Source of the DNA: Catonia carolina
Taxonomy: Eukaryota > Arthropoda > Insecta > Hemiptera > Achilidae
Reading direction: 5' to 3'
Length of the DNA stretch: 64,000 nt
Assembly: GCA_035578175.1 (NCBI GenBank)
Contig: JAQMRL010000001.1
Coordinates: forward strand, 369,637,720-369,701,719
Within the stretch, counting starts at the first letter, position 1; the number at the start of each line of letters is the position of its first letter. The notes below the pieces were generated by a model, which saw only the letters and a program-made list of their open reading frames with translations, did no database searches and was not told the origin of the DNA. Below, piece by piece: positions 1,028 to 64,000 of the stretch. The translations under genes were made by a program, and so were the position numbers.

Positions 1028-1300
1028 AGACCAATCTGGACTTATAATGTCCAGCTCTTTGAAGCAGCGGCAGAGAGTAACTTAAAATTGATCCAGAGCT
1101 TTTAGTCACAATTCTTGAGACTTGCTCTTGGCGCTCCTCTTTATGTAAGCAATAAAACCACTACGATTTCAAAATTCCGAGATTAAAGAAACTAATTGCG
1201 TTCTTATATGGTAAATTTTTTGAACGATTACGTAACCATCCCAACCAACTAGCCTAGACGTAGCTAAAAGGAATTTCCCGGCTGTACGATGTCTAAAGCA
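1028..1300 (+). pseudogene. Jockey-like LINE reverse transcriptase, C-terminal fragment
   Basis: Reading from 1028 gives RPIWTYNVQL, then AAAESNLKLIQSF, a stop, SQFLRLALGAPLYVSNK, and then several stops. This is the conserved post-RT segment of Jockey-clade polymerases (PIWTYG-QLWG-A--SN---IQ-FQSK-LR), where nascent LINE copies commonly end up truncated. The same motif recurs near 3250, 20550 and 33090. The coding match fades after about 1190 and the 3' border is approximate. It is a dead 5'-truncated copy with no promoter or endonuclease. Confidence 0.7.
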
Positions 1301-2904: not shown

Positions 2905-4612
2905 TTTTTCTCTTTAATTTTTTATTTACAACTGTAAAATGTTACAACAAGCAAATGTGATGATTATCGTGATTATGTAAATGACATGATAGGCATGAGA
3001 GGGGTAGGGCCTTCATTGGTGCCTCCCTAAGAATGAAATTTGTATATCAAATTAGCATGTCTCTACTCCAGCGTCTTTTAAGGCGTCTAGGAGGATTATC
3101 AGGTAAATGGACGGAGGAAAGTGAACGCACCAGGGGGTTCTCGTGTTCTTGTGACTTGTCGTGAAAGCGTTTGTATAGGTATTCAATGGAATTTTGTACA
3201 AGTGGTGTTTTCAAATCTGTATGTAAGATTTTGTTGCTAACGTAAAGAGGTGCTTTTGCTATAAGGCGTAATGTTTTTGACTGGAATGCTTGAATTCGTT
3301 GCAAGTTAGAGGGTTTGGTTGAACCGTAAATTTGGGATCCGTAGGTCTAAATAGGTTTCAAAAGAGAACAATATATGCGTAATTTTTGTGCCATTGGTAA
3401 TTTTGATCGTTCGTGAAGTAGGGAATATAGAAGTGTAAGTCGGGAATTCAGTAATAAACGTTTCCGTTTGATATGTGTGCTCCAAGTTAGTCGTTTATCA
3501 AAAGTCAGACCGAGATACTTGACCGTATCTGTTTTTGTGAGAGGTTCATTGTCTATGTATACTGGTGGGCAATCATCATGACGGAGTGTGAAAGTTACGT
3601 GAAGGGATTTTGTCGTATTAAGTTTTATTTTCCATGTTTTACACCATTCGTGTATAAGATTGAGATGATGTTGGAGTGTTAGTGAAGCGTGTATAGAGTT
3701 TTGATCTCGGGCAAATATCGCTGTGTCGTCGGCGTAGGTAGCAGTGAGGGTCTGGTGTAGGGTCGGTTGGTCTGAAGTGTATACAGAATAGAGAAGTGGA
3801 GCTAAAATTGAGCCCTGAGGCACGCCGACTAAGACAATAAAGAAATTTGAGTAGGACGATCCTAAACAAATTCTAAAGAATCTATCAGATAGGAAGGAAT
3901 TTATGATAAGGTAGTAGGTAAATGGTAGTATTTCTTTCAGTTTGTGTAAGAGACCTGTATGCCAAACTCTGTCAAAAGCTTGAGCGACATCCAGGAAACC
4001 TGTGGACACATACATCTTTTGTTCCATAGACGAAGCTATGTAATCAGTCACCCTGTGCAGTTGTTGTGTAGTGGAGTGTTGAGTGCGGAATCCGAATTGA
4101 TGTGGAGGTAGTATATCATGAACCAGCGGAAGGATGCGCTTGTAAAGGAGTTTTTCGAAAATTTTTGAAGGTTCTGAGAGGAGGCTTAATGGTCGGTAGG
4201 AGGAAGGTGTGTGAAAGGGTTTGTTCGGTTTTTGTATCATTACTATTTCTGTATACTTCCACTGTGTGGGGAAATGTGTCGTGCGCAATATACTATTGAA
4301 GATTGTAGTAAGGAGAACGAGCGCTTTCCGCGGTAAGTGTTTAAGTATGTCAGCTGTTATTAAATCATATCCCGGTGACTTCTTACGGGGTAATCTCGAA
4401 ATTTCAGATTTTACTTCGGAGGGGTGAAAGTATTTCGGCGGGAGGGATAATTGAAGCGGTTCATCTAGTGACTGAGTAACGCGTTGGTGATGTACAAATT
4501 GGATGTCATTATGGGGAGTGAATGTTTCAGAAAGATGTCTACCAAAGCATTCAGCTTTGTCGTCATCAGTTATTAGCCAGGGCCCGTCACCCACCCTAAG
4601 GGGCATCGATGT
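2905..4612 (-). mobile_element. 5'-truncated Jockey-like non-LTR retrotransposon
   Basis: Minus-strand LINE copy made of the RT-containing reading frame at 3047-4606, a 3' UTR of about 140 bp and an A/T-rich tail near 2905-2925. The endonuclease and first ORF are missing because the copy stops at about 4612, where the sequence changes abruptly to AT-rich DNA. This is the usual result of incomplete target-primed reverse transcription. No target-site duplication could be fixed because the 3' tail merges into T-rich flank. Confidence 0.8.
3047..4606 (-). pseudogene. Jockey-like reverse transcriptase (pol), broken by one nonsense codon
   Basis: The upper part (4606 down to 3350) has the RT fingers and palm in order: PRKKSPGYDLITADIL, then IQKPNKP and SSYRPLSLLS, then FLDVAQAFDRVWH carrying the first catalytic Asp, GVPQGSILAPLLYSVY, and the YADD active site (TYADDTAIFARD), followed by thumb residues TVKYLGLTFD. 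The frame stops at LLKPI-stop-TYG, where relatives have PIWTYG, so a Trp codon has become TAG. It then stays open to 3047, ending with the Jockey tail PPRRLKRRWSRDMLI. The endonuclease domain is absent. Apart from this nonsense codon the frame is intact, suggesting a fairly young copy. The role would have been reverse transcription of LINE RNA at a nicked target. Confidence 0.88.
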
Positions 4613-13601: not shown

Positions 13602-14835
13602 CAAGATCTGTTCAGAAAATAACGGGAATTTTTAAATTTCGCAGGTTTGGAGCGTCCGATTGTCAAGATTTTATTTATTATGTTGGTATATTAGCCCCTG
13701 AATTATGATAAAATTTTCAGCTGTATTCATTGTTTACTTTGAATGTGGCAGCCGCTAAGGTTAGACGTGTTTGTATGAGCTCGGCGATTTTCGTTTGTTT
13801 AGCCCTTTTAGTTTTGGAAATAAGAAAAAGTTACACGGAGCCATGTCTGGCGAATGTGGAGGCTGGGGCATCGTTACAGGTGCATTATCATGGTGCAAAA
13901 GCCATGAATTGTTTTGCCCCAAATCCGAGCGTTTTTTTTTTTTTTGGATTGATTCATGCAAACAGTATTGAACTTGTAAGTAGTACTCCTTATTGACCGT
14001 TTGACCTCGTTGAAAGAATTCATGATGCAATGTGCTATTAAAATCGAAGAACACAGTGTGCATATCCTTCACGTTCGACCGCACTTGTCGAGGCTTTTTC
14101 ACTCTTGGCGATCCAGAATGCCTTCACAGGGACGATTGAGCTTTAATATCGACTTCATATCCGTAAACCCATGTTTCGTCACCTGTTATAACAAGTTTCA
14201 GTGATTCTGTATGGTTTTTGACTTCATTTAGTGACTCCTGAGCAACTTCTATTCACCGCTGTTTTTGTTCAAAATTTAAAAAAAAATTTGGAACAAATAT
14301 TGCTGCCGTGCGTTTCGAACCGAAAACAATCAAAAATGTTTCATGGTATGAGCCAATCGATATGCCAACATCATCACTGACTTCTCTGAATGTGTGGTTC
14401 GGCGATCGTTCATAACCATTAATTTCACTTCTTCCACGTTTTCATTGGTTGTTGATGTACTGGGGCGTCCGGGGTGTTCGTTATCTTCAATGTTTTCACG
14501 GCCATCTTGGAAACGCTTATACCACTCGTAAACCCTTGTTTTCCTTGTAGCAGACTCACTATAGGCCTTTGTTAACATTTTACGCCCTTTTTTCATTTTT
14601 TACACAAAATTTGTTACAAATTGCATAAGCCATTTTTTAACAGACGAAAATCGCCAAGCTCATAAAAACACGTCTATCCTTAGCGGCTGCCACAGACAAA
14701 ATAAAAAATGAATACAACTGAAAATTTTATCAAACTTAAGGGGCAAATATACCAACATAACAAAAAAAATCTTGACAATCGGACTCTCTAAACCCGCGAA
14801 ATTTAAAAATTCCTTTATTTTCTGAACAGACCTCG
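13602..14835 (-). mobile_element. Near-full-length dead mariner element with long inverted repeats
   Basis: Both ends carry TCTGTTCAGAAAATAA as inverted repeats (left from 13602, right to 14835). The inverted match continues inward for roughly 190 bp, through GCAGCCGCTAAGG and CGATTTTCGT. TA dinucleotides flank both sides (13600-13601 and 14836-14837), the Tc1/mariner target duplication. At 1234 bp it is close to the usual 1.3 kb mariner length. The interior encodes a broken transposase on the minus strand. Confidence 0.9.
13761..14596 (-). pseudogene. Mariner transposase, broken
   Basis: The N-terminal part (14596-14330) contains RKTRVYEWYKRFQDGRENIE and HPGRPSTST, the second helix-turn-helix and linker of mariner transposases, which bind the terminal repeats. 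The C-terminal part (14102-13761) contains a degraded HHDNAP and PPHSPDMAPCNFFLFPKLK, corresponding to the HDNAP and SPDLAP-D-FLFP-LK blocks around the catalytic DD(34)D triad. The position normally occupied by the third Asp reads CNFFLF, so Asp has become Asn. The middle part is interrupted by stops and frame changes. Not functional. Confidence 0.88.
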
Positions 14836-21400: not shown

Positions 21401-22440
21401 TTATTTACTTTCTTCTTGGTTTGCAAACTGAGAGACTGGAGTCAACTTCGAGATGTGGAAAAGATTCGATTCTGATCTTTTTTGGCCAGTGTATATCTTG
21501 TAAATTGAGTTCGATATTTTCTCTATAATTTTGTAGGGTCCGACTCTCAGTTCGTCGAGCTTTTTCCGATTCAGTTTGTTTCCATTGTCCACAAAAACCG
21601 TATCACCAATTTTGAAGTCACCACGTTTTCGATTCCTATCATAAACTGTTTTGTTGTAATTATGCGTTTTGATTGTATTTTCCAGAGCTCTTTCCCTGTC
21701 TCTAATCAAGTCAATCTCTGTCTTTTCAGGTTTTAACTCCTTTGGCAAAATTGTAACATCTGTACCATTTAGTAGATATATTGGAACATATCCAGTTATA
21801 GTGTGCACAGTTTCATTATAATTTTTTACACAATTTTGTGCTATGGTGGTCCATGCTGCTTTGCTGTCTTTTTCGTTAATCTTACACCTGATTTTATTGA
21901 CCAACGTTTGATTTAATCTCTCATTTAAACCGTTTGAGAATTGTGAATTCACTGCAGTGAAAATTAGTGGAATATTTTTATTATCCAAAAATGTTTTGAA
22001 TTCTCTAGAATTGAGGCCTGGGTACTGGTCTAAGAGGATTATTCCAATGTTGTCAGCTTCTGCGGTATTTTCCACTAGTTTGATAAAGTCCTTCGCATTT
22101 TGAGTCCTTGATGTCAAAATATAAGCGTATCTTGTGAAATGGTCTGATAGCAGGTGCAAGTATCTTTTTGTTGATCTTGAACCCCCAAAGCCTCCAATAG
22201 TATCAATGGAACAAATTTCAAAAGGCTTTGTGGCAGGACCCAGGTGAGACATCAACCCATATTTATTTTGTCCTCTTGATTTGTTTTTTATACATACTAC
22301 ACAGCTTTCGCAGACATGTTTTGTGTTTTTTGTCATGTTTTCTGCTGTATATGAGGAGCTGATCATTCTTTGCATTTGTTTAATTCTTATATGACCTAGG
22401 CTTATATGTACATTAATGATGAATTCTTTACTAAATTTTT
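21401..22440 (-). pseudogene. Gypsy integrase domain (pol segment 4)
   Basis: Inserts element cDNA into the genome. Upstream of the first Met the same frame holds HISLGH, then CESCVVC, an HHCC-type zinc-binding N-terminal domain. The catalytic core follows: ICSIDTIGGFGG (first Asp), ILLDQYPGLNSREF (second Asp), and NSQFSNGLNERLNQTL (Glu), an apparently intact DDE set. The C-terminal part has RKRGDFKIGDTVFV and LDELRVGPYKIIEKI, the GPY/F module typical of many Gypsy integrases. The domain is uninterrupted to its stop at 21401. It has no start of its own and would have been made only as the end of a polyprotein now broken upstream by a frameshift near 22490. Confidence 0.88.
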
Positions 22441-22467
22441 CTGATAGAATAATTTTTTCTTTTTTCT

Positions 22468-23172
22468 TTACGCTTTTGTAATAAACGTTTTTTTGGACAT
22501 TAGTTTTTCTCTTTGGTATTGTATCTTTTCATTTTGAGCTTGGTCTTTTAAGATATCCTCTAGTCTTATTAAGTTTACTACTTTTAATTGCTCATACAGG
22601 TACTCATTTGGCTCTAAGACAGGATTCCTGCTTAGGCAATCAGCTTCAATGTTGTGTCTCCCTGGAGAATATTTAATTTGAAAATCGTATTGAGATAAAT
22701 AGTAAGTTAAATCTCCTAATTCTTCATCCGTTCTTGATCTTATGTTCATATTCTCCAGCGGTTTGTGATCTGAAAAGACAGTAAATTTTCTACCCATCAA
22801 TAAATGCTGCCAATATTGAACACATTGTTTGATTGCTAGGCATTCTAGGTATATAGCTTTCTTCTTTTTCTGAACTTCATTCAATTTCTTTGAAAAGTAT
22901 GCAACTGGTTTTTCTTCATTGTTTTCTTGTGGTTGTTTAAGTACGGCTCCTACGCCTAGTATACTAGCATCTGTGTAAATGTGTATAGGCAAATTTGGAT
23001 CAAAAATAGTCAATATTGGTTGAGAGCATAGTAAATGTTTCATTTCATCAAATGACTCTTGGCATGCTTTTGTCCAGTTAAAAGTTTGCCCTTTTCTTAA
23101 AAGGTTATGTAAAGGGTCTAATTTTATTGCTATTTTTGGCACATACTTATGATAATATTTTATCTTTCCCAA
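22468..23172 (-). pseudogene. Gypsy RT connection and RNase H (pol segment 3)
   Basis: Begins in the RT thumb (GKIKYYHKYVPKIA, then PLHNLLRKGQTFNWTKACQE). It continues into the RNase H-like domain with PIHIYTDASILGVGAVLKQP (first catalytic Asp), KAIYLECLAIKQCVQYWQHL (Glu), KFTVFSDHKPLE (Asp) and QYDFQIKYSPGRHNIEADCL (final His/Asp region). RNase H removes the RNA from the RNA-DNA hybrid. The frame ends at 22468 because of an indel in a run of seven A (minus strand, near 22490) before the integrase spacer. At its other end it is out of frame with the RT segment because of a run of eight A near 23187. Confidence 0.88.
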
Positions 23173-23704
23173 AAATTTTCTTACATTTTTTTTGCGTTTT
23201 TGGAGTTGGAAAGTTTCGTATTGATATTAAGTTGTCTTTCAGAGGTTTAACTGAATTATTCTGTATGATATGACCCAGGTATTTCACAGACTCAGCTGCA
23301 AAAGTACATTTAGAGAATTTTAGTTTCAAGCCTTCATTTTTTATTTCTTGAAAGAGCTGTGTTAGATGTTTGATGTAGTCTGGGAACGTTTTTGAAAATA
23401 GCAAGATATCATCAATAAAGCTTACTGTAAACTCACCGAGTTTGTGTTTACGTATTATGTTACACATTATCCTTTGGAAAATAGCTGGTGAGGTTTTTAG
23501 GCCGAAGGGCAAACAAGTCCATTGAAAATGGCCCTCCTGTGTGACGAATGCAGTTTTGTGTCTATCTGTGACACGCAAAGGTATAGACCAAAATGCTGAG
23601 TTCAAGTCCAACGTTGAGAAAAACTTACAATCTCTTGTCCGTACCATTAGGTCCTCAATAAGTGGGAATGGTTGTGATTGAGGAATGACAATTTTATTTA
23701 GGTC
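23147..23704 (-). pseudogene. Gypsy reverse transcriptase core (pol segment 2)
   Basis: Contains FFSTLDLNSAFWSIPL (first catalytic Asp block), KTAFVTQEGHFQWTCLPFGL and FTVSFIDDILLFSK (IDD, the Gypsy form of the Y/F-x-DD active site), followed by GLKLKFSKCTFAAESVKYLG, typical of Gypsy RT. The frame is continuous with the protease segment except for one in-frame TGA at about 23703, right after CIDF, where relatives have Arg. A CGA-to-TGA change would explain it. Downstream the frame is lost in an A8 homopolymer near 23187. Confidence 0.9.
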
Positions 23705-26740: not shown

Positions 26741-29695
26741 TCAGGGTGCCGCTCCGGTCCGGAGGTTGGCGATCATCATGGCGATGCGTACTTTATCTGA
26801 GGCTATACGAAACAGTTCCAGTGAGCTCTTCTCAAACCAGGTTCTTAGATTGGCCAGCCAGGATATTCTTCTTCGTCCCGGTTTTCTTTTCCCGTCAATT
26901 TTGCCCTGCAGAATTTGTTGCAGCAACTCATATCTGTGCTCGTTACGCATTATGTGTCCCAAATACTGAAGTTTACGTGCCTTTACTGTGTTAACTAACT
27001 CGGCTTCCTTGCCCATTCGACGTAAGACTTCCTTGTTGGTGATTTTTTGGGTCCAGGATATTCTCAGTATTCGTCTATAGAGCCAGAGTTCAAAAGCTTG
27101 CAATTTGTTAATTGTTGCCTGTGTTAATGTCCAGGCTTCTACTCCGTAGAGGAGGACTGAGAATACATAACACTTCAGCAGTCGTAATTTCATTGGAAGT
27201 GTCAAGTTATGGCTCTTGAAAACCGAACCCATGTTATTGAAGACACTTCTAGCCTTTGCAATACGACATTTTATTTCCTGCGAGTTATCCCACGTCTCGT
27301 TTATACATGTGCCCAGATATTGACATTGTGACACTCTTTCTATTCTAACCCGATTGACTACAATATGATCGTGTGCACCAATCTGTTGTTTGCTGATGAT
27401 CATCACTTTTGTTTTGTTAGGATTTATCTCCAATCCATATATTGCACTAACCTCTGTTAGCTTGTCCATTACTTTTTGTAGGCCTTGTATGGTGTCGGCA
27501 AATACCAGCGTGTCATCAGCATATCTTAAATTGTTCAATCTGATTCCATTTATTGATATTCCCTCCTCTATATTATGTAATGCTTCTCTGAAAATACGTT
27601 CGGAGTACAAATTGAACAGGATCGGCGACAAAATGCATCCCTGTCTCACACCTCTCAAGATTTTAACTTCATCTGTGTGGTCGTCTCCACATTTCAGTAC
27701 CGCCGTTTGGTTCCAGTAGAGATTTGTTATTATTTTGCGGTCTTTTGCGTCTATTCCTATCTCCTCTAGTATCGCCATCATCTTCTCGTGCCTGACACGA
27801 TCGAACGCCTTTTGATAATCAATCAGACAGGCAAAAACGTCGCAACTCACATCCCTACATCTCTGGAACAGTATTTGCACACTAAATAGAGCCTCTCTAG
27901 TCCCAACCGCATTCAGGAAGCCGAATTGATTGGGCGAAATTTGCTCTTCACAAATTTTATACATTCTTTTATGAATTATTTTCAAGAATAACTTTAGGAG
28001 ATGACTCATTAAGCTTATTGTCCTGTGGTCTTCACACTTCTTAGCACCTTTCTTCTTTGGTAAAGTTATAAATTCTGACTTCAACCAGTCCCTTGGAATG
28101 ATTCCTCTTCTATAAACGGTGTTGAAAATTGTAGTTAACCATTGCACTCGTTTTTCATCCATCAGTTGAATGATCTCTGCAGGAATTCGATCCAGTCCTG
28201 TTGCTTTTCCCTTTTTGAGCTGTTGAATGGCTGCTTCTACTTCTTCCTTTAAAATGTCCGGGCCATCTGTATCCTTGATCTCTGGCTCCACCTCCTGTCG
28301 TGCGTCATAAAACAATTTTTCGAGATACTGTTTCCAAGTGTCTTTCTTTTCTTCTTTATCAATTATTATCCTTCCGCTCTCATCTACTAATTTCCCATAC
28401 GTTTTCTTCCGAAACATTCCCGTTGCTTCCTTGACTTTGCGATGTACATTAAAGTCATCATATCTCTTTTGATATTGTTCTATTTCTTCACACCTCTCCC
28501 TTTCCTCCTTCTCCTTGGCTTCACGTATTTTCTTTCTTATAATGTTTTGCATCTTTTTATATTTCACTGGATGTTGTTTCAATTTTCTTCTTTCATCCAT
28601 TAGGCTCAGAATTTCCTCTGTCATCCACGATTTCTTCTTCCTTCTATCTACTTGTAATTGTTGTTGTTTGACTTCTTCCACAACTGCCTTCAAGTTCTCA
28701 ATCTCCGTTTCCACATTGAGATCGTGGCTCTCATTTACACAATCGTTTATTATTTGTTTAACTTCTTCTTTTATCACCGGATCATTCAGCTTCCTTATGT
28801 CCCATCTCTGTTCCTTTTTAGGTATTATCTTTTTCATTCTAAATTTGAAAGTACCAACCAGAGGCACATGATCGGATTGAATGTCTGCTCCAGGATACGT
28901 TCTTACATTTATACATCCATTCCTAAATCTCTTATTAACCAGTATATAGTCTATTTGATTACGTATTATTTGGTCAGGTTTATCCCTAGGTGACTTCCAG
29001 GTGTATAGTCTTCTTGGTGGTTGCTTGAACCATGTGTTCGTGATTACTAATTGATGTGTTTCAACGAACAGTTCCAAAGTGTCACCACGGTCATTTCTTC
29101 CTCCCAGACCAAAAGCACCCACCAACTCAGATGTCCTACCTTTCCCAATTTTTGCGTTAAAATCGCCCATTGTGATGAGTATTTCATGTTTCTTTAGTTT
29201 TTTGATAATGTCATTTATACTTTGATAAAATTCTTCTACTTCCTCATCTGTATGGTCCGCTGTGGGAGCGTATACTTGAATTACGTTGATATTAACTGGA
29301 GCCGCTCGAAATTGTACCAGCATTACTCGTTGTGATATGGGTACAAAGTTACTGATGCATTTAGCCATTTTGCCCGTCACAATCACTCCGACTCCCTGCT
29401 CATGTACTCCTGTTGATGTACCCGAGTACAACACAGTGTGTTCTGCAATTATGTTTACTCCTGTACTCGGCCATCGCATTTCACTAATGCCAAGTATATC
29501 TAGTTTCATTCTCGTCATTTCTTGTATAGCATTGCGTATTTTACCCGCTTGACTCATTGTTTTCACATTCCAAGTTCCGATTCTGATGTTTGCCTTTTGT
29601 TTAATCTTCTTCACTGCCGTGCTTATAACTGTCCCTCCCGGAGACCCGATTGAGGGACTTACTCCGGATGCTAATTTGGTTACAAGCATTGCCAT
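26741..29695 (-). CDS. LINE endonuclease-reverse transcriptase, intact
   Basis: 984 residues. An apurinic-type endonuclease spans about residues 36-285: RIGTWNVKTM, DILGISEMRW (metal-binding Glu), QVYAPTADHT, MGDFNAKIG and the SDHVPLVGTF end with its catalytic Asp-His. A coiled, charged linker (about 300-460) follows. The RT spans about 484-760: LKKGKATGLDRIPAEII, FITLPKKKGAKKCEDHRTIS, CLIDYQKAFDRVRHEKM (catalytic Asp), ILRGVRQGCILSPILFNLYS and LRYADDTLVFAD (YADD at 725-728). The C-terminal part has LLYGVEAWTLTQATINKLQA, YLGHIMRNEHRYELL and ELFRIASDKVRIAMMIANLR. The protein nicks target DNA and reverse transcribes its own RNA at the nick. All key residues seen are present and no stop or frameshift was found, so it may be competent. 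Closest named relatives in insect annotations are 'craniofacial development protein 2-like' proteins, a mislabel of such LINEs. Confidence 0.93.
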   Translation of the reverse strand: MAMLVTKLASGVSPSIGSPGGTVISTAVKKIKQKANIRIGTWNVKTMSQAGKIRNAIQEMTRMKLDILGISEMRWPSTGVNIIAEHTVLYSGTSTGVHEQGVGVIVTGKMAKCISNFVPISQRVMLVQFRAAPVNINVIQVYAPTADHTDEEVEEFYQSINDIIKKLKKHEILITMGDFNAKIGKGRTSELVGAFGLGGRNDRGDTLELFVETHQLVITNTWFKQPPRRLYTWKSPRDKPDQIIRNQIDYILVNKRFRNGCINVRTYPGADIQSDHVPLVGTFKFRMKKIIPKKEQRWDIRKLNDPVIKEEVKQIINDCVNESHDLNVETEIENLKAVVEEVKQQQLQVDRRKKKSWMTEEILSLMDERRKLKQHPVKYKKMQNIIRKKIREAKEKEERERCEEIEQYQKRYDDFNVHRKVKEATGMFRKKTYGKLVDESGRIIIDKEEKKDTWKQYLEKLFYDARQEVEPEIKDTDGPDILKEEVEAAIQQLKKGKATGLDRIPAEIIQLMDEKRVQWLTTIFNTVYRRGIIPRDWLKSEFITLPKKKGAKKCEDHRTISLMSHLLKLFLKIIHKRMYKICEEQISPNQFGFLNAVGTREALFSVQILFQRCRDVSCDVFACLIDYQKAFDRVRHEKMMAILEEIGIDAKDRKIITNLYWNQTAVLKCGDDHTDEVKILRGVRQGCILSPILFNLYSERIFREALHNIEEGISINGIRLNNLRYADDTLVFADTIQGLQKVMDKLTEVSAIYGLEINPNKTKVMIISKQQIGAHDHIVVNRVRIERVSQCQYLGTCINETWDNSQEIKCRIAKARSVFNNMGSVFKSHNLTLPMKLRLLKCYVFSVLLYGVEAWTLTQATINKLQAFELWLYRRILRISWTQKITNKEVLRRMGKEAELVNTVKARKLQYLGHIMRNEHRYELLQQILQGKIDGKRKPGRRRISWLANLRTWFEKSSLELFRIASDKVRIAMMIANLRTGAAP

Positions 29696-58140: not shown

Positions 58141-58289
58141 TTTTATTACTTTATATATGTTTTTTTAATTTTTCTAATTTTCTTTGCATAGTTGTAAAAT
58201 TAAATTTAATGAATTAAAAAAATCGTACAAGGAAAACCCGAAGTTCATTAATATTGAATACTGGCGTAGCTGTGAGTAGGGGAAAATGG

Positions 58290-58600
58290 GGTTGTTCTAC
58301 CCAAAATGGTTTTGGATTTGTTTTATTTTAGTTTTCTGTTGTCAGATTGTGATTGTGATGGGGTTGGGTATCTGTATTTGTATTAGGTCTAATCAGCTCA
58401 GAAAAGTGTTTTGGGTTTGTTTAGGGTTGGTTGTCTTTGGTCAGATTATGATAGGTTTGGTTTTCTTTATTTGTGTTTGGTGTTATGGTCAGATTTGTTG
58501 TTGTTGTTTAGTTGGTTGGTTGGTTGGTTGGTTGGTTGGTTGGTTGGTTGGTTGGTTGGTTGGTTGGTCTTGTAGATGTTGGTGTAGTTTATGGGATGTG

Positions 58601-58634
<34 letters not shown>

Positions 58635-59130
58635 AGTGTTAGATTGTAGTCAGGTAGTCAGATTTTTTTTTTTATGGTCTTGTAGTCAGATTGTATAGTT
58701 AGTGAGAGATAGTCAGATTTTTTTTTAAGTCAGATAGTCGGATTGTATGGTTAGATAGTCAGATTTTTTTTTAGTCATGTAGTCAGATTGTGTGTGTGTG
58801 TGTGTGTGTGTGTGGTGGTGGTGGTCAGGTAATCAGATTGTATAGTGAGAGAGATAGTCAGATTTTTTTTTTAATTCAGGTAGTCAGATTGTGTGTGTGT
58901 GTGGTCAGGTAGTCAGATTTTTTTTTTTAGTCAGACAGTCAGATTTTTTTTTTGTGAGATATGCAGATCGTATAAAGATAGAGTTAGATTGTATGGTCGG
59001 GTAGTCGGTTTGTGTGTGTGTGTGTGTGTTTGGTGGTCAGATAGTCAGATTGTATAGTCAGATAGTCAGATTTTTTTTTTAGTCACGTAGTGAGATTGTA
59101 TGGTCAGAAAAAATGTATGTTCTCAAATAG
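58290..59130 (+). repeat. G/T-rich minisatellite with TAGTCAGATTTTTTTT units
   Basis: The plus strand is almost free of C for about 850 bp. It contains a (TTGG)n run (about 58508-58567), a T30 run (about 58603-58633), (TG)n runs at 58790-58812, 58890-58902 and 59010-59028, and about ten irregular copies of a unit like GTAGTCAGATTTTTTTT or TAGTCAGATTGTATGG. The same TAGTCAGATAGTCAG motif recurs at 60620-60640 between array units. ORFs across it are compositional artefacts. Confidence 0.85.
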
Positions 59131-59132
59131 GG

Positions 59133-59326
59133 TGTTTATTTGGATTTTTTTTTTGATTTGGTTTGTTGTTTAATTTGTATAGTGATTTGAGTTATTTAGT
59201 TATTTGTATTTGGATTTTTTTAACTTTCTGGCTCTTTTCTTCTTCTTATTCCAATACATAGTTGGTAACGATGATAATGATGATGGGTATATGTTTCATT
59301 TATATAAATTCTAATTTGGGAAGAGA

Positions 59327-59364
<38 letters not shown>

Positions 59365-59400
59365 GTGTTTGTGATATGGGGTTGAGAGTGTTATCTCTAG
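59133..59400 (+). promoter_or_regulatory. Conserved upstream region of array gene 1
   Basis: Repeated with small changes at 60652-60900 and, partly, 61805-62050. It contains TGATTTGGTTTGTTGTTTAA, TTTCTGGCTCTTTTCTTCTT, GATAATGATGATGGGTATAT, TTATATAAA and GGGTTGAGAGTGTTATCTCT. Here a (GA)n run of about 30 bp (59331-59361) lies 40 bp before the TATA box, much longer than in the other copies. GA runs can bind GAGA-type factors in insects. Confidence 0.6.
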
Positions 59401-59401
59401 G

Positions 59402-59433
59402 TATATATATAAAGGGGATGGTTGGAGATCAGT
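59402..59433 (+). promoter_or_regulatory. Core promoter of array gene 1 (TATA + TCAGT initiator)
   Basis: TATATATATAAA ends at 59413 and ATCAGT lies at 59428-59433, 23 bp from the T of TATAAA to the initiator A. TCAGT is the arthropod initiator consensus. Predicted start at A59431 gives a 25-nt leader. Confidence 0.7.
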
Positions 59434-59455
59434 AAATAGTTATTGTCGACGAAGG

Positions 59456-59839
59456 ATGTGCATGAAGAATTGCATGAAGATAAAGGAATTGTACATTTGT
59501 GATTCGTTACAAGATATCTCGTGGTGTACGATATTTAATACTTTATTGAATAAAAAAATGCCTCGCTACTACGATCTTGATATGGTGCGATTTTATGCAG
59601 AAAATCGTATGATCAAAGCAAGTGAATGTAGATTATATTGTATTATTACTAAATTTAACGATGAAGAATGGAATTGCCTAAAGTTGTTAAGCGTTTATGA
59701 CGTTTTACAAAAAAGAGTGATTTATAATTTGAAACGAAAAATATATAACTACACAAATAGGGTGTTTCTAAGACATGATGATGCTTGTAAATATTTAATG
59801 CGTTTAATTCGACGTAGAAAAATAATTAGTCGTATATGA
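59456..59839 (+). CDS. Array gene 1: small basic protein, unknown family
   Basis: 127 codons, intronless. I do not recognise the family. It shares with the three other copies: a leading YICDSLQ, SWCTIFNTLLNKKMPRYYDL (residues about 28-47), KASECRLYCII, a variable stretch of about 12 residues, LSVYDVLQKRVI, RKIYNYTNRVF and a basic end (RLIRRRKIISRI). It is rich in Lys, Arg, Tyr and Cys, has no signal peptide or membrane segment, and has no obvious metal-binding spacing. The start at 59456 is the first ATG after the initiator; a second in-frame Met follows two codons later. The N-terminus is of the 'KELYICDSLQ' type shared with gene 3. A role in nucleic-acid binding is possible from the charge, but that is inference only. 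Confidence 0.68.
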   Translation: MCMKNCMKIKELYICDSLQDISWCTIFNTLLNKKMPRYYDLDMVRFYAENRMIKASECRLYCIITKFNDEEWNCLKLLSVYDVLQKRVIYNLKRKIYNYTNRVFLRHDDACKYLMRLIRRRKIISRI

Positions 59840-60513
59840 TATATATATATATCTAACTTTTTTATAATCTAACTTTTTTATAATCTAACTTTTTTTGTAG
59901 TTATAAAATCATATTTTAAATGTTTCTATTTAAAAAAAAACCAATATTTCGTATTTGTAAATACATATTTAGCTTGTAGTGAATGTTTCACACCAACATT
60001 TTTTACACTTATAATTTTTTAATGATACAATTGATAATTTAAAAACACAGGAAACTTTTTTTACTAAACTATATCTTACAAAAACATTATCAAAAGATTT
60101 ATTTATGTGGATAAAGATTGTTGTTGGTGAGTTTTCAAGATGATAATATTAAAAAAATAACCTTAAGATTTGTTAATAATATTTTTATGTTTTTATTTAA
60201 TTATTTTTCTTCTTATTTTAATATATATACTTATAAATAAGAATGGGTATAGGTGTAGTTTTATTTATGAATACAGATTGTTGTTGGTGGTGAGTTTTTT
60301 TAAAGATAATAATAAAATAATCTTTAGATTTGATGACGATAATAATAATAATGAAGATTTGATAAAAAATTGTAATATTTTTTGGACAACTAGTAAATGT
60401 GGTTATAAATATTTGGATAGTTTTATTTGCTCGTGTTTAGTGTTTGTTGTTGTTGGTCTGGTTATTGTTCTACTACTGATAAATATAATATTATAAATAT
60501 ATATATAGTGCCG
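59840..60513 (+). other. Spacer unit X between array genes 1 and 2, copy 1
   Basis: Repeats TCTAACTTTTTTATAA three times just after gene 1. The part from 59885 recurs nearly identically at 62738-63100 and, after the copy-4 gene, at 63509-63823. It contains a 108-codon open stretch at 60170-60496 with hydrophobic ends, but this has no ATG and the second copy has a 2-base shift near 63675, so it is not kept as a gene. Confidence 0.6.
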
Positions 60514-60630
60514 ATGAATAATGTTGTCGGTGTTGGTGAACCGATTAATTCTTCTTATTCAATACAGTTTATAGATAGAGGTGGTATTAGTGGTCCAACC
60601 ACAGTTACGCTTAAGTTGTTAGTCAGATAG
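60514..60630 (+). pseudogene. Truncated copy of the Gly/Asp/Val-rich ORF
   Basis: From ATG 60514: MNNVVGVGEPINSSYSIQFI, DRGGISGPTTVTLKLLVR and stop. It parallels the ORF at 63824-64000 (both begin MNNV, share VGEPIN, YS-QFID-GG and TVTLKLL), with the Gly-rich centre shorter here. It is cut at LKLL by a junction with the TAGTCAGATAGTCAG minisatellite, which supplies the stop. Confidence 0.5.
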
Positions 60631-60651
60631 TCAGTTTTTTTATTGGTGTGT

Positions 60652-60903
60652 GTTTATTTATTTGCATTTGGATTTTTTTTTTGATTTGGTTTGTTGTTTA
60701 ATTTGTATAGTGATTTGAGTTATTTAGTTATTTGCATTTGGATTTGTTTTTAACTTTCTGGCTCTTTTCTTCTTCTTATTCTAATACATAGTTGGTGACG
60801 ATGATAATGATGATGGGTATATGTTTTATTTATATAAACTCTAATTTGGGAAGAGAATAGAGAGAGAATTGTGTTTGTGATATGGGGTTGAGAGTGTTAT
60901 CTC
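60652..60903 (+). promoter_or_regulatory. Conserved upstream region of array gene 2
   Basis: Near-copy of 59133-59400, including TGATTTGGTTTGTTGTTTAA, TTTCTGGCTCTTTTCTTCTT, TGACGATGATAATGATGATG and GGGTTGAGAGTGTTATCTCT. The GA run is reduced to AGAGAGAG. Confidence 0.6.
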
Positions 60904-60933
60904 TATATATAAAGGGGATGGTTGGAGATCAGT
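60904..60933 (+). promoter_or_regulatory. Core promoter of array gene 2 (TATA + TCAGT)
   Basis: TATATATAAA at 60904-60913 and TCAGT at 60929-60933. The predicted leader from A60931 to the ATG at 60949 is only 18 nt. Confidence 0.72.
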
Positions 60934-60948
60934 AAATAATTATTGTCG

Positions 60949-61314
60949 ATGATACAGCATGGAGGATTATACAATTGTTATTCGTTACAAGTTATGTCGT
61001 GGTGTGCGATATTTAATACTTTATTGAATAAAAGAATGCCTCGCTACTACGATCTTGATACGGTGCTATATTATGCACAAAATCCTATGTTCAAAGCAAG
61101 TGAATGTAAATTACATTGTATTATTAAACAAAAATATGATGAATGTTATTCGATAGAAGAGCTAAGCGTTTATGAAGTTTTACAAAAAAAAGTGATTGAT
61201 CATTTGAATCGAAAAAAATATAACTTCTCAAATAGGGTGTTTGTAACATATGATGACACTCATAAATATATAATGCGTTTAAGTCGACGTGGAAAAATAA
61301 GTAGGCGTATATGA
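60949..61314 (+). CDS. Array gene 2: small basic protein, unknown family
   Basis: 121 residues from ATG 60949. The N-terminus is of the MIQHGGLYNCYSLQ type shared with gene 4. It then has MSWCAIFNTLLNKRMPRYYD, LDTVLYYAQNPMFKASECKL, HCIIKQKYDE, a variable patch, LSVYEVLQKKVIDHLNRKKY, NRVFVTYDDTHKYIMRL and a basic end (SRRGKISRRI). Nearly identical to gene 4 up to the last 15 residues. AATAAA occurs at 61418-61423, about 100 bp after the stop, as a possible polyadenylation signal. No signal peptide. Confidence 0.68.
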   Translation: MIQHGGLYNCYSLQVMSWCAIFNTLLNKRMPRYYDLDTVLYYAQNPMFKASECKLHCIIKQKYDECYSIEELSVYEVLQKKVIDHLNRKKYNFSNRVFVTYDDTHKYIMRLSRRGKISRRI

Positions 61315-61804
61315 TATATATTCAACACAGTAATTTTTTTTACTAACATATATCTCATAAAATCTTATCATAAGATTTTTTATGTGCGTACAAAGATTTT
61401 TATTGGTGAGTAAAACAAATAAATTTTTAATTTTTTTTAGACAAAAAAATACTAAATGAATTGATTATCACATCAATTAACTGAAATTAACCATATCCTT
61501 TTTTTTAAATATATATATATACATTGCAGTCTAGTAAAAAAATTATTAACAATTATAACTGTGAATTGGTGTATGGTAAACTATCACAAAATAAAATTAA
61601 TTGAAACAAAGTAAATAATAATTAACAAATTTAACAAAAATATATTCTACGGACCATTACAAATACCCGCAAAAAAAAACTCAATACAAATCCAATCCGT
61701 CCCACACAGAATAGTACAACACCGGGTACTTGTTCATCACTGTAGTGACACGAAGAGTCTACCCAAATAGAAAAAAAGATCACATATAAATTTTAGAATA
61801 TATT
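61315..61804 (+). other. Spacer after array gene 2
   Basis: AT-rich. Its end (about 61705-61800, AGTGACACGAAGAGTCTACC, then CACATATAAATTTTAGAATA) matches the segment after gene 3 (62565-62635) and the C-terminal codons of gene 3, showing how gene 3 acquired its longer tail. Confidence 0.55.
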
Positions 61805-62044
61805 TATGGGGTTTTTTTTTATAGTGGTTTTGGGTGTTTGGTTTGTATAGTGGTTTGGGGTGTTTAGTTATTTGTTTTTTTTTTAACTTTCTGGCTCTTT
61901 ACTTCTTCTTATTCTAATATATATATATAGTTGGTGAGGGTGATGTTGTTTGGGTATATGTTTTATTTATATAAACTCTAATTTGGAAAGAGGATATAAA
62001 AATTAAAAAAAATTGTGTTTGTTTGTGATATCGGGTTGAGATTG

Positions 62045-62069
<25 letters not shown>
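61805..62069 (+). promoter_or_regulatory. Conserved upstream region of array gene 3
   Basis: Diverged copy of the shared upstream region: TTTGTATAGTGGTTTGGGGT, TTTCTGGCTCTTTACTTCTT, GGGTATATGTTTTATTTATA and TATCGGGTTGAGATTGTTGT. The GA run is absent here. Confidence 0.55.
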
Positions 62070-62075
<6 letters not shown>

Positions 62076-62094
62076 GGGGGTGTTGGAGATCAGT
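62052..62094 (+). promoter_or_regulatory. Core promoter of array gene 3 (TATA + TCAGT)
   Basis: A long (TA)n run ends in TATAAA at 62070-62075, and TCAGT follows at 62090-62094. A predicted start at A62092 gives a 28-nt leader that contains an out-of-frame ATG at 62110 (14-codon upstream ORF ending 62154, overlapping the gene start). Confidence 0.7.
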
Positions 62095-62119
62095 AAATAA
62101 TTATTGTCGATGATACAGC

Positions 62120-62554
62120 ATGAAGAATTACATGAAGGAATTGTACATTTGTGATTCGTTACAACGTATGTCGTGGTGTACGATATTTAATACTTTATTG
62201 AATAAAAGAATGCCACGCTACTACGATCTTGATACGGTGCTATATTATGCACAAAATCGTATGTTCAAAGCAAGTGAATGTAAATTATATTGTATTATTC
62301 CTACAGAAAGGCGTGATGAATGGTATTGGATAAGGTCGTTAAGTGTTCGTGTTTTACAAAAAAAAGTGATTTATCATTTGAAACGAAAAATATATAACTA
62401 TACAAATAGGGTGTTTCTAAGACATGATGGTGCTTGTGCATATTTATTGCGTTTAATTCGACGTAGAAAAAGACTTAATCGTTCTTATGTATTCGAAACA
62501 ATAATCAAAAAGAAAAAAAAATCATATATAAATTATAGAATATATTTAGAATAG
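62120..62554 (+). CDS. Array gene 3: small basic protein, longest copy
   Basis: 144 residues. Like gene 1 it starts in the MKNYMKELYICDSLQ style. Shared core: MSWCTIFNTLLNKRMPRYYD, LDTVLYYAQNRMFKASECKL, YCIIPTERRDEWYWIRSLSV (this copy's variable patch), VLQKKVIYHLKRKIYNYTNR, VFLRHDGACAYLLRLIRRRK. It continues about 25 residues beyond the usual end (VFETIIKKKKKSYINYRIYL), because the frame runs into spacer-type DNA. One residue pair is missing in LSVRVLQ compared with LSVYEVLQ. Translation may be lowered by the overlapping upstream ORF. Function unknown. Confidence 0.65.
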   Translation: MKNYMKELYICDSLQRMSWCTIFNTLLNKRMPRYYDLDTVLYYAQNRMFKASECKLYCIIPTERRDEWYWIRSLSVRVLQKKVIYHLKRKIYNYTNRVFLRHDGACAYLLRLIRRRKRLNRSYVFETIIKKKKKSYINYRIYLE

Positions 62555-63100
62555 AATAGTACAACGCCGGATAATTATTCATTACTGAAGTGACACGAAG
62601 AGTCCACCCAAATAGAAAAAAAAAATCACATACCACAATTTCTGGATCGTATATGCCACAAAACGTAGGCGTATGTGATATGTATATATATATATTAATT
62701 TGTTGGGAGAATTAGTCAAAAGAGTGTTCAAACTTAATCTAACTTTTTTTTTGTAGTTATAAAATCATATTTTAAATGTTTCTATTTAAAAAAACCAATA
62801 TTTCGTATTTGTAAATACATATTTAGCTTGTAGTGAATGTTTCACACCAACATTTTTTACACTTATAATTTTTTAATGATACAATTGATAATTTAAAAAC
62901 ACAGGAAACTTTTTTTACTAAACTATATCTTACAAAAACATTATCAAAAGATTTATTTATGTGGATAAAGATTGTTGTTGGTGAGTTTTCAAGATGATAA
63001 TATTAAAAAAATAACCTTAAGTTTGTTAATAATATTTTTATGTTTTTATTTAATTATTTTTCTTCTTATTTTAATATATATACTTATAAATAAGAATGGG
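62555..63100 (+). other. Spacer unit X, copy 2, first part
   Basis: 62738-63100 is almost identical to 59885-60252 (shared AATGTTTCACACCAACATTT, GATGATAATATTAAAAAAAT). It ends at TAAGAATGGG (63091-63100), where the copy-4 gene interrupts it. Confidence 0.75.
63054..63100 (+). repeat. 47-bp direct repeat, left of array gene 4
   Basis: TTATTTTTCTTCTTATTTTA...AAATAAGAATGGG. An identical copy except one base (C to G) lies at 63509-63555. In the uninterrupted spacer (60206-60252) the sequence occurs once, so the repeat was generated when gene 4 was inserted. Confidence 0.85.
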
Positions 63101-63108
63101 TTATCTCT

Positions 63109-63137
63109 ATATATAAAGGGGATGGTTGGAGATCAGT
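63109..63137 (+). promoter_or_regulatory. Core promoter of array gene 4 (TATA + TCAGT), upstream region lost
   Basis: TATATATAAA ending at 63117 and TCAGT at 63133-63137, in the same spacing as genes 1 and 2. Homology to the other upstream regions begins only at about GTTATCTCTATATATAAAGG (63100), so the distal regulatory region is missing. Confidence 0.72.
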
Positions 63138-63152
63138 AAATAACTATTGTCG

Positions 63153-63548
63153 ATGATACAGCCTGGAGGATTATACAATTGTTATTCGTTACAAGTTATG
63201 TCGTGGTGTACGATGTTTAATACTTTATTGAACAAAAGAATGCCTCGCTACTACGATCTTGATACGGTGCTATATTATGCACAAAATCCTATGTTCAAAG
63301 CAAGTGAATGTAAATTACATTGTATTATTAAACAAAAATATGATGAATGTTATTCGATAGAAGAGCTAAGCGTTTATGAAGTTTTACAAAAAAAAGTGAT
63401 TGATCATTTGAATCGAAAAAAATATAACTTCTCAAATAGGGTGTTTGTAACATATGATGACACTCATAAATATATAATGCGTTTAGATCGACATCGAAAA
63501 AGACTTACTTATTTTTGTTCTTATTTTAATATATATACTTATAAATAA
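63153..63548 (+). CDS. Array gene 4: small basic protein with chimeric C-terminus
   Basis: 131 residues from ATG 63153 (MIQPGGLYNCYSLQVMSW...). Almost identical to gene 2 through KYIMRL, with few changes (H to P, A to T, I to M). It then follows the gene 3-like RHRKRL and ends TYFCSYFNIYTYK and stop. Those last 13 residues are encoded inside the 47-bp repeat at 63509-63555, which belongs to the spacer, so the protein end was captured on insertion. The promoter is core-only. Whether it is expressed is unknown. Confidence 0.65.
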   Translation: MIQPGGLYNCYSLQVMSWCTMFNTLLNKRMPRYYDLDTVLYYAQNPMFKASECKLHCIIKQKYDECYSIEELSVYEVLQKKVIDHLNRKKYNFSNRVFVTYDDTHKYIMRLDRHRKRLTYFCSYFNIYTYK

Positions 63549-63555
63549 GAATGGG
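63509..63555 (+). repeat. 47-bp direct repeat, right of array gene 4
   Basis: Second copy of 63054-63100 with a single C-to-G difference. It encodes the C-terminal residues and stop of gene 4 and then continues into the second half of spacer unit X. Confidence 0.85.
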
Positions 63556-63823
63556 TATAGGTGTAGTTTTATTTATGAATACAGATTGTTGTTGGTGGTG
63601 AGTTTTTTTAAAGATAATAATAAAATAATCTTTAGATTTGATGACGATAATAATAATAATGAAGATTTGATAAAAAAAATTGTAATATTTTTGGACAACT
63701 AGTAAATGTGGTTATAAATATTTGGATAGTTTTATTTGCTCGTGTTTAGTGTTTGTTGTTGATCTGGTTATTATTCTATTACTGATAATTATAATATTAT
63801 TAAAAAAAATATATATAGTGACG
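63556..63823 (+). other. Spacer unit X, copy 2, second part
   Basis: Continues the spacer exactly where it was interrupted (matches 60253-60513), with a 2-base insertion near 63675 and other small differences. Confidence 0.75.
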
Positions 63824-64000
63824 ATGAATAATGTTGGTGATGTTGGTGATGTTGGCGGTGTTGGTGAACCGATTAATACTCATTATTCAGTACAGTTTAT
63901 AGATGGAGGAGGAGTTGGTGTTGATGTAGGTGGTGGTGATGATGATGGTGGTGGTGGTTCATCCACAGTTACGCTTAAGTTGTTAGAGATGCTCTACAGT
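63824..64000 (+). CDS. Gly/Asp/Val-rich ORF, start of a gene running off the window
   Basis: 59 codons open to the window edge from ATG 63824: MNNVGDVGDVGGVGEPINTH, YSVQFIDGGGVGVDVGGGDD, then a Gly run and STVTLKLLEMLYS. The GATGTTGGT-type triplets expand between the two copies (60514 and here), while VGEPIN, YS-QFID and TVTLKLL are kept, which suggests selection on the flanks of a slippage-prone linker. The remaining protein lies outside. I do not recognise it. TATATATAG lies about 12 bp upstream but no TCAGT follows, so the real start could be elsewhere. Confidence 0.42.
   Translation, partial: MNNVGDVGDVGGVGEPINTHYSVQFIDGGGVGVDVGGGDDDGGGGSSTVTLKLLEMLYS

What the first reader, a model, noticed from the sequence alone, without database searches (positions are those of the whole stretch)
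59133..63548. Tandem array of four intronless paralogous genes of unknown family, each with a TATA + TCAGT promoter
Four reading frames of 121-144 codons share a core (SWC-IFNTLLNK-MPRYYDLD, KASEC-L-CII, VLQK-VI, NRVF and a basic tail). Each is preceded by TATAAA, TCAGT 22-23 bp from the TATA T to the initiator A, and an ATG 18-28 nt later. Conservation of the frame and of the promoter geometry while spacers drift argues for real expressed genes. I know of no family with this signature, and TATA + TCAGT suggests strong, regulated expression, for example tissue-restricted.
Basis: partly seen in the sequence, partly recalled or inferred. Interest (0 to 1): 0.82.

Follow-up and report, generated by a model that had tools for sequence, protein, structure and literature searches.

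The report
Gene array inside a jumping insect provirus
Four look-alike genes at the end of this insect DNA window are most likely not ordinary host genes: they sit near one end of a large virus-derived mobile element, roughly 105 to 145 thousand bases long, that lies in many nearly identical copies across the insect's genome.

Summary
In detail: four ATG frames of 127, 121, 144 and 131 codons, each behind TATAAA and TCAGT, 22-23 bp apart. Searches found no convincing relative. The host-gene reading is most likely wrong. In the 1.47-Gb genome holding the window, copy 2 gave 150 scored matches, its own array included. The array lies about 1.1-5.1 kb inside one end of a dispersed element. That terminus recurs 14 times forward and 16 times reversed, controls 0; six convergent pairs bound 105-145 kb. 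Four of six pairs carry exact 6-bp target-site duplications; the terminal repeat is about 0.7 kb. Sampled pieces hold large-DNA-virus genes: family-B DNA polymerase, Rpb1-like subunit, deoxynucleoside kinase, NIF/DUF705, CHC2 zinc finger, BIR, Erv1/Alr-like. The polymerase has 26 full-length, stop-free copies at 99-100% identity. Best reading: an early-type accessory gene family of a nudivirus-like provirus inserted by its ends. The window holds an 11.5-kb truncated copy (58275-69775). dN/dS is near 1. The integrating enzyme was not found, and three of the six paired elements show no array match.

The parts
58255..58274 (+). host DNA immediately left of the insertion
   Evidence: Similarity to other element copies stops here; the left flanks read differ from copy to copy
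58275..59059 (+). left terminus (AGTAGGGG...; AGTAGGTGG... in the copies found by pattern) and GT-rich terminal inverted repeat; right limit approximate
   Evidence: Same terminus at other sites; the right end of the C58:138.3M element aligns to window 58275-58388 (79%) and 58402-59059 (82%)
59108..59137 (+). relic of the tail of a fifth array copy
   Evidence: 30 bp at 90% to copies 2 and 4
59138..59407 (+). upstream module of copy 1 (97.9% identical to that of copy 2 over 233 aligned sites)
59408..59433 (+). TATAAA (59408) and TCAGT (59429) of copy 1
59456..59839 (+). array gene copy 1, 127 aa
60514..60630 (+). shortened copy of gene B (38 codons, then stop)
60908..60933 (+). TATAAA (60908) and TCAGT (60929) of copy 2
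60949..61314 (+). array gene copy 2, 121 aa
   Evidence: query of the genome search
62070..62094 (+). TATAAA (62070) and TCAGT (62090) of copy 3
62120..62554 (+). array gene copy 3, 144 aa; starts at the second ATG
63050..63101 (+). left copy of a 52-bp duplication flanking the copy-4 segment
   Evidence: identical to 60197-60248; the right copy differs at 2 of 52 positions
63102..63504 (+). about 403-bp promoter-plus-gene segment, like copy 2 (98%), placed inside a spacer that is unbroken after copy 1
63112..63137 (+). TATAAA (63112) and TCAGT (63133) of copy 4
63153..63548 (+). array gene copy 4, 131 aa; last codons read into the duplicated spacer
63505..63556 (+). right copy of the 52-bp duplication
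63824..64000 (+). gene B (151 aa in full), runs past the window end to L031:279
   Evidence: no relative found with residues 2-59 or 1-59

Best explanation
The array is a small multigene family of a large double-stranded DNA virus that lies as a dispersed, transposon-like provirus in a hemipteran (probably psyllid-like) genome. Paired ends bound elements of 105-145 kb; the inverted repeats are about 0.7 kb and begin AGTAGG; insertion makes 6-bp target-site duplications. The sampled gene set is nudivirus-like (Naldaviricetes-like). Where present, the array sits about 1.1-5.1 kb inside one terminus. Its TATA + TCAGT promoters are the arthropod RNA polymerase II type that insect large DNA viruses use for early genes (recalled), so the host transcription machinery would read these genes first after infection or activation. 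The products are small, basic (pI 9.15-10.04), cysteine-containing and lack an obvious signal peptide, so they probably act inside the cell as dispensable, fast-changing accessory factors that meet host proteins or nucleic acid. The array changes by unequal exchange, gene conversion and short insertions. Shown: frames, promoter motifs, dispersal, termini, duplications, virus genes in sampled pieces, stop-free polymerase copies. Inferred: early expression, intracellular accessory role, and insertion by an integrase acting on linear ends, whether by transposition or by reinfection.
For: Dispersal: 150 scored matches of 290 candidates, with arrays of four or five copies on several contigs; C69 and C133 match the window's spacing within about 15 bp. 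Downstream DNA is 99.7% identical over about 6 kb between C1 (window), C69 and C111. Terminus: 14 forward + 16 reverse, backward-pattern controls 0 and 0; six convergent pairs of 105,195-145,000 bp. 6-bp duplications exact in 4 of 6 pairs, a fifth probable, the sixth absent; first 100 nt of the two ends identical in two elements. TIR about 0.7 kb (ends of two different elements compared). Virus genes in paired elements: DNA_pol_B 8.6e-33 (C53:1.16M) and an Rpb1 domain 4.1e-5 (C58:138.3M) with a DFDGD motif; BIR 8e-9 (C1:56.76M) and Erv1/Alr-like 1.8e-5 (C53:8.93M); BIR 3.1e-15 (C2). In a copy with one end found (C69): dNK 2.2e-51. In the second lineage (L039): NIF 1.2e-16 with DUF705 above its cut-off, CHC2 1.4e-12; these stretches align at 80-82% DNA identity to a piece of the paired C1:56.76M element. 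Array at 1.1-5.1 kb and polymerase at 32-34 kb from the left terminus in the three paired elements that hold the array. 26 full-length stop-free polymerase copies at 99-100% and three at 84%; the three lie within about 17 kb of relatives of the array gene at 33-34% identity. One such relative lies between the CHC2 and NIF/DUF705 genes.
Against: Three of the six paired elements (C2, C53:1.16M, C53:8.93M) hold none of the 150 scored array matches (140 candidates were not scored). No transposase or integrase that would explain 6-bp duplications was found in the pieces read (at most about 27% of any paired element). PF00589 (tyrosine recombinases) gave nothing in the genome. Genome searches for LEF-8, P74 and PIF-2 models did not complete, and most element proteins scanned match no family above its cut-off. 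The Rpb1 and Erv1/Alr matches are just under their curated cut-offs. Some pieces (L060, L067, L072) hold no long frame. The TATA + TCAGT arrangement was not seen, by eye, in the 80 nt before two distant relatives or five other element genes; two of these five have a CAGT within 11-16 nt of a TATA-like run. dN/dS near 1 gives no support for purifying selection on the proteins. No expression data.
Confidence: 0.82

Rival explanations
1. Sub-question of the best explanation: repeated germline insertion by a circulating exogenous virus. Each copy is a separate integration of a linear virus genome, with no movement from one genomic copy to another.
For: 26 stop-free polymerase copies at 99-100% identity and 99.7% identity between loci fit recent arrivals; a virus-like gene set is kept.
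Against: The number of near-identical full-length copies in one reference genome is high for independent infections; a truncated copy (the window's own), a diverged second lineage and interrupted copies also point to long residence.
Confidence: 0.35
2. Host lineage-specific tandem gene family, for example fast-evolving effectors like the Hessian fly SSSGP genes, whose promoters are conserved while coding parts diversify.
For: Copies 1 and 2 are 97.9% identical upstream but 85.1% in the core (Fisher p 1e-7); the same pattern is described for SSSGP-1 (PMC2955719: abstract, section 4 part 1 and section 7 read).
Against: The array recurs with virus genes and the element terminus; no signal peptide-like start; copies 1 and 3 show the reverse trend (upstream 77.1%, core 88.5%), so the upstream match of copies 1 and 2 looks like gene conversion.
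Confidence: 0.04
3. Teratorn-like fusion: a piggyBac transposon captured the virus and moves it.
For: A 467-aa piggyBac-type transposase (DDE_Tnp_1_7, 2e-65) lies inside the C58:138.3M element.
Against: piggyBac makes TTAA duplications (PMC10175614 passage), whereas these are 6 bp with varied sequence. It was seen in one piece of one element and may be a nested transposon. The search that would decide it did not complete.
Confidence: 0.07
4. The frames are non-functional repeats inside the element, open by recency alone.
For: dN/dS 0.95-0.99 over 26 distinct cores, not different from 1 (only open frames entered). Pairwise ML 0.8-2.3, none significant.
Against: Three divergent cores all open in only 21 of 4000 neutral simulations; core indels all 3 nt; two inspected relatives at 32-39% identity keep SWC and YDLD and are open.
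Confidence: 0.15

Closest known systems
Endogenous nimaviruses of crustaceans as giant transposable elements (PMC10871703; abstract and section 12 read)
   Same: Large DNA virus genomes multiply integrated by defined ends; the sesarmid crab ones (265-285 kb) have terminal inverted repeats and a Ginger2-type integrase.
   Different: TIR there is 46 bp and the target (AT/TA)n; here about 0.7 kb with varied 6-bp targets, 105-145 kb, an insect host and a gene set with an Rpb1-like subunit and a DUF705 protein. No integrase found here. Nimavirus genes were not searched for.
Endogenous nudiviruses of Hemiptera (Nilaparvata, Aphis glycines, Melanaphis; PMC7916170 passages read)
   Same: Nudivirus-type genomes in hemipteran genomes, proposed there as their own clade.
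   Different: I saw no report of TIRs, 6-bp duplications and tens of stop-free near-identical copies for them in those passages or in the listings.
Teratorn (piggyBac-herpesvirus fusion, medaka; PMC10175614 abstract and passages read)
   Same: Giant virus-derived element with inverted ends and target-site duplications.
   Different: TTAA targets, 18-bp TIRs, herpesvirus genes.
Polinton/Maverick elements
   Same: Long TIRs starting AG and 6-bp duplications (recalled).
   Different: 10-40 kb in size and with protein-primed polymerase (PMC10175614 passages); here over 100 kb, with an exonuclease-bearing family-B polymerase (PF00136 + PF03104).
Ichnovirus rep genes (PMC1539012 passages read)
   Same: Multigene family, no introns, no predicted signal peptide, in an insect-associated large DNA virus lineage.
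   Different: rep motif is 540 bp; the core here is about 105 codons; no rep sequence was at hand to compare directly.

Membership tests
Naldaviricetes / nudivirus-like virus | family-B DNA polymerase of its own | tested here: met
   PF00136 8.6e-33, PF03104 1.9e-16
Naldaviricetes / nudivirus-like virus | virus-encoded RNA polymerase (LEF-9, Rpb1-like) | tested here: inconclusive
   PF00623 4.1e-5, 24.3 bits against cut-off 25.3; DFDGD motif in a 547-aa protein; LEF-9 identity is recalled
Naldaviricetes / nudivirus-like virus | 38K-type phosphatase | tested here: met
   NIF 1.2e-16 and DUF705 9.9e-6, both above cut-off, in second-lineage locus L039; homologous stretch in the paired C1:56.76M element; DUF705 = baculovirus 38K is recalled
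Naldaviricetes / nudivirus-like virus | P33 sulfhydryl oxidase (Erv1/Alr) | tested here: inconclusive
   PF04777 1.8e-5, 25.4 bits against cut-off 27.6
Naldaviricetes / nudivirus-like virus | PIF entry proteins, P74, LEF-8 | not tested
   Genome searches for PF04941, PF04583, PF04631 did not complete. The element proteins scanned against Pfam gave no PIF, P74 or LEF-8 match; PIF-like look of some ORFs is by eye only
Naldaviricetes / nudivirus-like virus | VLF-1 tyrosine recombinase | tested here: inconclusive
   PF00589: no match in the genome, controls rang; divergent VLF-1 could be missed
Transposable element with TIRs | same inverted termini at independent sites | tested here: met
   14 + 16 termini, controls 0 and 0
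Transposable element with TIRs | fixed-length target-site duplication | tested here: met
   6 bp exact in 4 of 6 pairs; one of 6 bp with an extra AGT, read by eye; one absent
Transposable element with TIRs | encodes its own transposase/integrase | tested here: inconclusive
   none found apart from a piggyBac-type gene that may be nested; only part of the elements read
Polinton/Maverick | protein-primed DNA polymerase, up to about 40 kb | tested here: not met
   PF00136/PF03104 polymerase, 105-145 kb; the protein-primed family itself was not searched for
Teratorn / piggyBac | TTAA target duplication | tested here: not met
   AACAAC, CACACA, ATTATT, CACACG
Hessian fly-type SSSGP effectors | signal peptide | tested here: not met
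   no hydrophobic start; best 11-residue mean hydropathy in the first 30 residues 0.95-1.42; no dedicated predictor at hand
Ichnovirus rep family | conserved 540-bp rep motif | tested here: inconclusive
   core about 105 codons; no match among 5.8 billion proteins, but that search is word-limited

The most novel reading that the evidence does not exclude
A nudivirus-like insect virus has become a self-mobilising giant transposon: a 105-145-kb element with about 0.7-kb inverted ends and 6-bp target duplications, still spreading (26 stop-free near-identical polymerase genes), that uses an unidentified integrase. A tandem, turn-over-prone family of early proteins of no known family sits next to its terminus as its host-facing module.
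Probability: 0.42. Interest if true: 0.9.

Novelty: new variant of a known kind. Interest (0 to 1): 0.77.

Why it matters
Endogenous nudiviruses gave rise to bracoviruses and are known in Hemiptera (PMC7916170 passages), but how such large virus genomes enter chromosomes is unclear. Copies with precise inverted ends, 6-bp duplications and stop-free genes make the integration chemistry and the virus-to-transposon transition directly testable in an insect, alongside the crustacean nimavirus and fish Teratorn cases. It also shows that a convincing 'host orphan gene array' can be provirus cargo.

Tried and rejected
Family and homology searches that led nowhere for the array protein: Pfam (best DUF7403 at 0.17), NCBIfam (best 0.015, below cut-off), PHROGs (best 0.0026 and 0.0037 to an unnamed family, copies 2 and 4), 5.8 billion proteins, IMG/VR, PDB (best 0.58). 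Gene B: none. IMG/VR had no relative of the polymerase. Rfam and the tRNA scan of the window: none. AlphaFold on the four-row alignment: mean pLDDT 38.9, so no fold search was made. PDB search with the 381-aa membrane-type protein: none.

Considered and dropped: positive selection as the headline. Copies 1 to 3 give 59.5 replacement to 8.5 silent changes against 4.0:1 expected, one-sided p 0.056, but ML tests are not significant and 26 cores give omega 0.95-0.99. The first neutral simulation was discarded because its majority sequence was not checked for stops and one search found one; one search replaces it. Hessian fly-type effectors and ichnovirus rep genes were leads that failed or could not be tested. 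Host segmental duplication was dropped because the flanks read differ and duplications are present. L036 first looked like a short inverted-repeat derivative; no right terminus was found in it.


Full report
WHAT IS IN THE WINDOW. Four ATG frames on the + strand end the window: 59456-59839, 60949-61314, 62120-62554 and 63153-63548, of 127, 121, 144 and 131 codons. They share a core of about 105 codons. Each follows TATAAA and TCAGT, 23, 23, 22 and 23 bp apart, and the ATG comes 25, 18, 28 and 18 nt after the initiator A. A run of TATATA precedes each TATAAA, so the TATA box may sit a few bases further upstream. In copy 3 the first ATG is out of frame. Frames of this length are uncommon by chance: at least one of 121 codons in 13-18 of 1000 Markov copies of the region, four observed.

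HOW THE ARRAY EVOLVED. Copies 2 and 4 are 98.1% identical in the core. Copies 1 and 2 are 97.9% identical upstream but 85.1% in the core, while copy 1 against copy 3 is 77.1% upstream and 88.5% in the core. Upstream sites group copies 1 and 2 in 41 of 46 informative cases; the coding part has no dominant grouping (19, 30 and 25). This looks like gene conversion or unequal exchange. Copy 4 is a promoter-plus-gene segment (63102-63504) inside a spacer that is unbroken after copy 1, flanked by a 52-bp duplication with 2 mismatches. A 30-bp relic of a fifth copy lies at 59108-59137.

SELECTION. Nei-Gojobori dN/dS is 1.96, 1.87 and 0.99 for pairs 1-2, 1-3 and 2-3, and 1.60, 0.44 and 0.87 for 1-4, 2-4 and 3-4. 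Pairwise ML gives 0.8-2.3, none different from 1. 26 distinct cores from 30 distinct open ORFs in the window and loci up to L037 give 0.95-0.99; only open frames entered, so this set is biased. Against pure neutrality, three divergent cores all stay open in 21 of 4000 simulations, and indels within the core are all 3 nt.

NO KNOWN FAMILY. Pfam, NCBIfam, PHROGs, PDB, IMG/VR and the 5.8-billion-protein set gave nothing convincing. The AlphaFold model is unusable. The proteins are basic (pI 9.15-10.04) without an obvious signal peptide.

THE TURNING POINT. After many unanswered attempts the own-genome search replied. The window is C1:369637720-369701719 of a 1.47-Gb, 142-contig assembly. Copy 2 gave 150 scored matches of 290 candidates, a lower bound that includes the window's own four. 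The rows are matched stretches, some of them fragments of one gene. 18 of 150 hold an internal stop; by my count 98 of 150 cover query residues 7-116 or more without one. Arrays of four or five copies recur on C69, C133, C106, C58, C111, C80, C53, C56 and elsewhere on C1; on C69 and C133 the spacing equals the window's within about 15 bp. DNA downstream of the window's array (63501-69775) is 99.7% identical on C69, and 63501-69503 is 99.7% identical on C111. The window copy parts from the C69 copy at 69775.

THE ELEMENT. On the left the similarity starts at a fixed terminus after unrelated flanks. A 27-base pattern of that terminus, up to 2 mismatches, occurs 14 times forward and 16 times reversed, with 0 and 0 for the backward control; the window's own variant terminus is not among them. 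Six convergent pairs bound 120,012, 119,673, 105,195, 145,000, 123,552 and 136,085 bp. Four pairs have exact 6-bp duplications (AACAAC, CACACA, ATTATT, CACACG). A fifth has ATCGCC with an extra AGT, my reading by eye. The sixth has none. In two elements the first 100 nt of both ends are identical; in the others 54, 78, 94 and 93 of 100 positions agree without gaps. The right end of the C58:138.3M element aligns for 678 nt to the left end of the C111 copy at 87%, so the TIR is about 0.7 kb. Termini 5'-AG...CT-3' with 6-bp duplications recall Polintons (recalled), but size and polymerase do not fit.

GENE CONTENT (pieces only, from several copies). In paired elements: family-B DNA polymerase and an Rpb1-domain protein with a DFDGD motif; an Erv1/Alr-like protein and a BIR protein; a SPRY protein; another BIR protein. 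In the C69 copy: deoxynucleoside kinase. In second-lineage and distant loci L039 and L038: NIF/DUF705 phosphatase, CHC2 zinc finger and BIR proteins; L039 aligns at 80-82% to a piece of the paired C1:56.76M element. A weak Baculo_PEP_C match (2.1e-6, below its cut-off) lies in a protein that also matches coiled-coil families. Retrotransposon inserts and one piggyBac-type transposase also occur. Pieces L060, L067 and L072 hold no long frame. The set resembles nudiviruses and their class (names such as LEF-9, 38K and P33 are recalled), but genome searches with models for LEF-8, P74 and PIF-2 did not complete.

COPY STATE. The polymerase protein gave 47 matches: 26 full-length, stop-free at 99-100%, three full-length and stop-free at 84%, the rest partial or interrupted. 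In the three paired elements with the array, array genes start at 1.1-5.1 kb and the polymerase lies 32-34 kb from the left terminus; in C1:56.76M the polymerase is in two pieces and only two array genes were listed. In two others the polymerase lies 42.8 kb from the left and 39.7 kb from the right terminus; in the C2 pair no polymerase was listed. Those three hold no listed array gene (positions entered by hand). The 84% lineage lies within about 17 kb of relatives of the array gene at 33-34% identity on the same three contigs. Two inspected relatives keep SWC, NTL and YDLD, and one lies between CHC2 and NIF/DUF705 genes. TATA + TCAGT as in the array was not seen before them or before five other element genes, though two of these have a CAGT 11-16 nt after a TATA-like run (by eye).

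HOST. The window's RTE-type retrotransposon is closest to psyllid sequences among named hits (Cacopsylla melanoneura 69%, Cyamophila 65%, Diaphorina 59%; an unnamed hit has 77%). A psyllid-like hemipteran is an inference; retrotransposons can move between species.

MECHANISM. Most likely the linear element end is joined to the chromosome by an integrase that makes 6-bp staggered cuts, as retroviral-type integrases do (recalled). The sesarmid nimaviruses are a published parallel with a Ginger2 integrase (PMC10871703, section 12). No such enzyme was found in the pieces read. The array near the terminus would be transcribed by host polymerase from TATA + TCAGT promoters; in Drosophila, TATA promoters show low background when inactive (PMC7863008 passages). 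Its products are most likely intracellular accessory proteins.

LITERATURE. Ten searches were made; three aimed at endogenous viruses and giant elements, listing 15 of 1,569, 7 of 7 and 20 of 71 papers. They showed endogenous nudiviruses in Hemiptera, nimavirus giant elements and Teratorn; no listed title or abstract start named a nudivirus-like element with TIRs and 6-bp duplications. The library holds only open-licence papers, so this is weak evidence of absence.

Noticed in passing
window 26741-29695 (-): 984-aa open RTE-type retrotransposon frame; nearest named relatives are psyllid sequences named 'Craniofacial development protein 2' by their source, which looks like a misannotation of retrotransposons.
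   Followed up: partly
window 3347-4606, 13761-14063, 21401-23647: Reverse transcriptase and gypsy-type pol fragments, and a weak (below cut-off) mariner-type transposase match.
   Followed up: no
L073:3560-4960 (-): piggyBac-type transposase (DDE_Tnp_1_7, 2e-65) inside a 136-kb element; could be nested or, less likely, the mobiliser.
   Followed up: partly
L061:85-825 and 1044-1784 (-): Two adjacent 247-codon ORFs in an element, identical in the first 110 residues printed: a second, recent tandem gene duplication.
   Followed up: no
L065, L067, L068, L071: Repeat arrays shared between pieces of different elements, and a 1065-codon open frame that begins with a short repeated peptide (L071:3558-6752).
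   Followed up: no
L036 (C1:129730000-129736999): One copy-2-like gene between stretches that match the element's left end in opposite orientations; thirteen rows, this one included, share the same 7-121 match at 95%, their surroundings not inspected.
   Followed up: partly
window 63824-64000 and L031:1-279: Gene B, 151 aa, Gly/Val-rich start, no relative found; a shortened copy lies at 60514-60630.
   Followed up: partly
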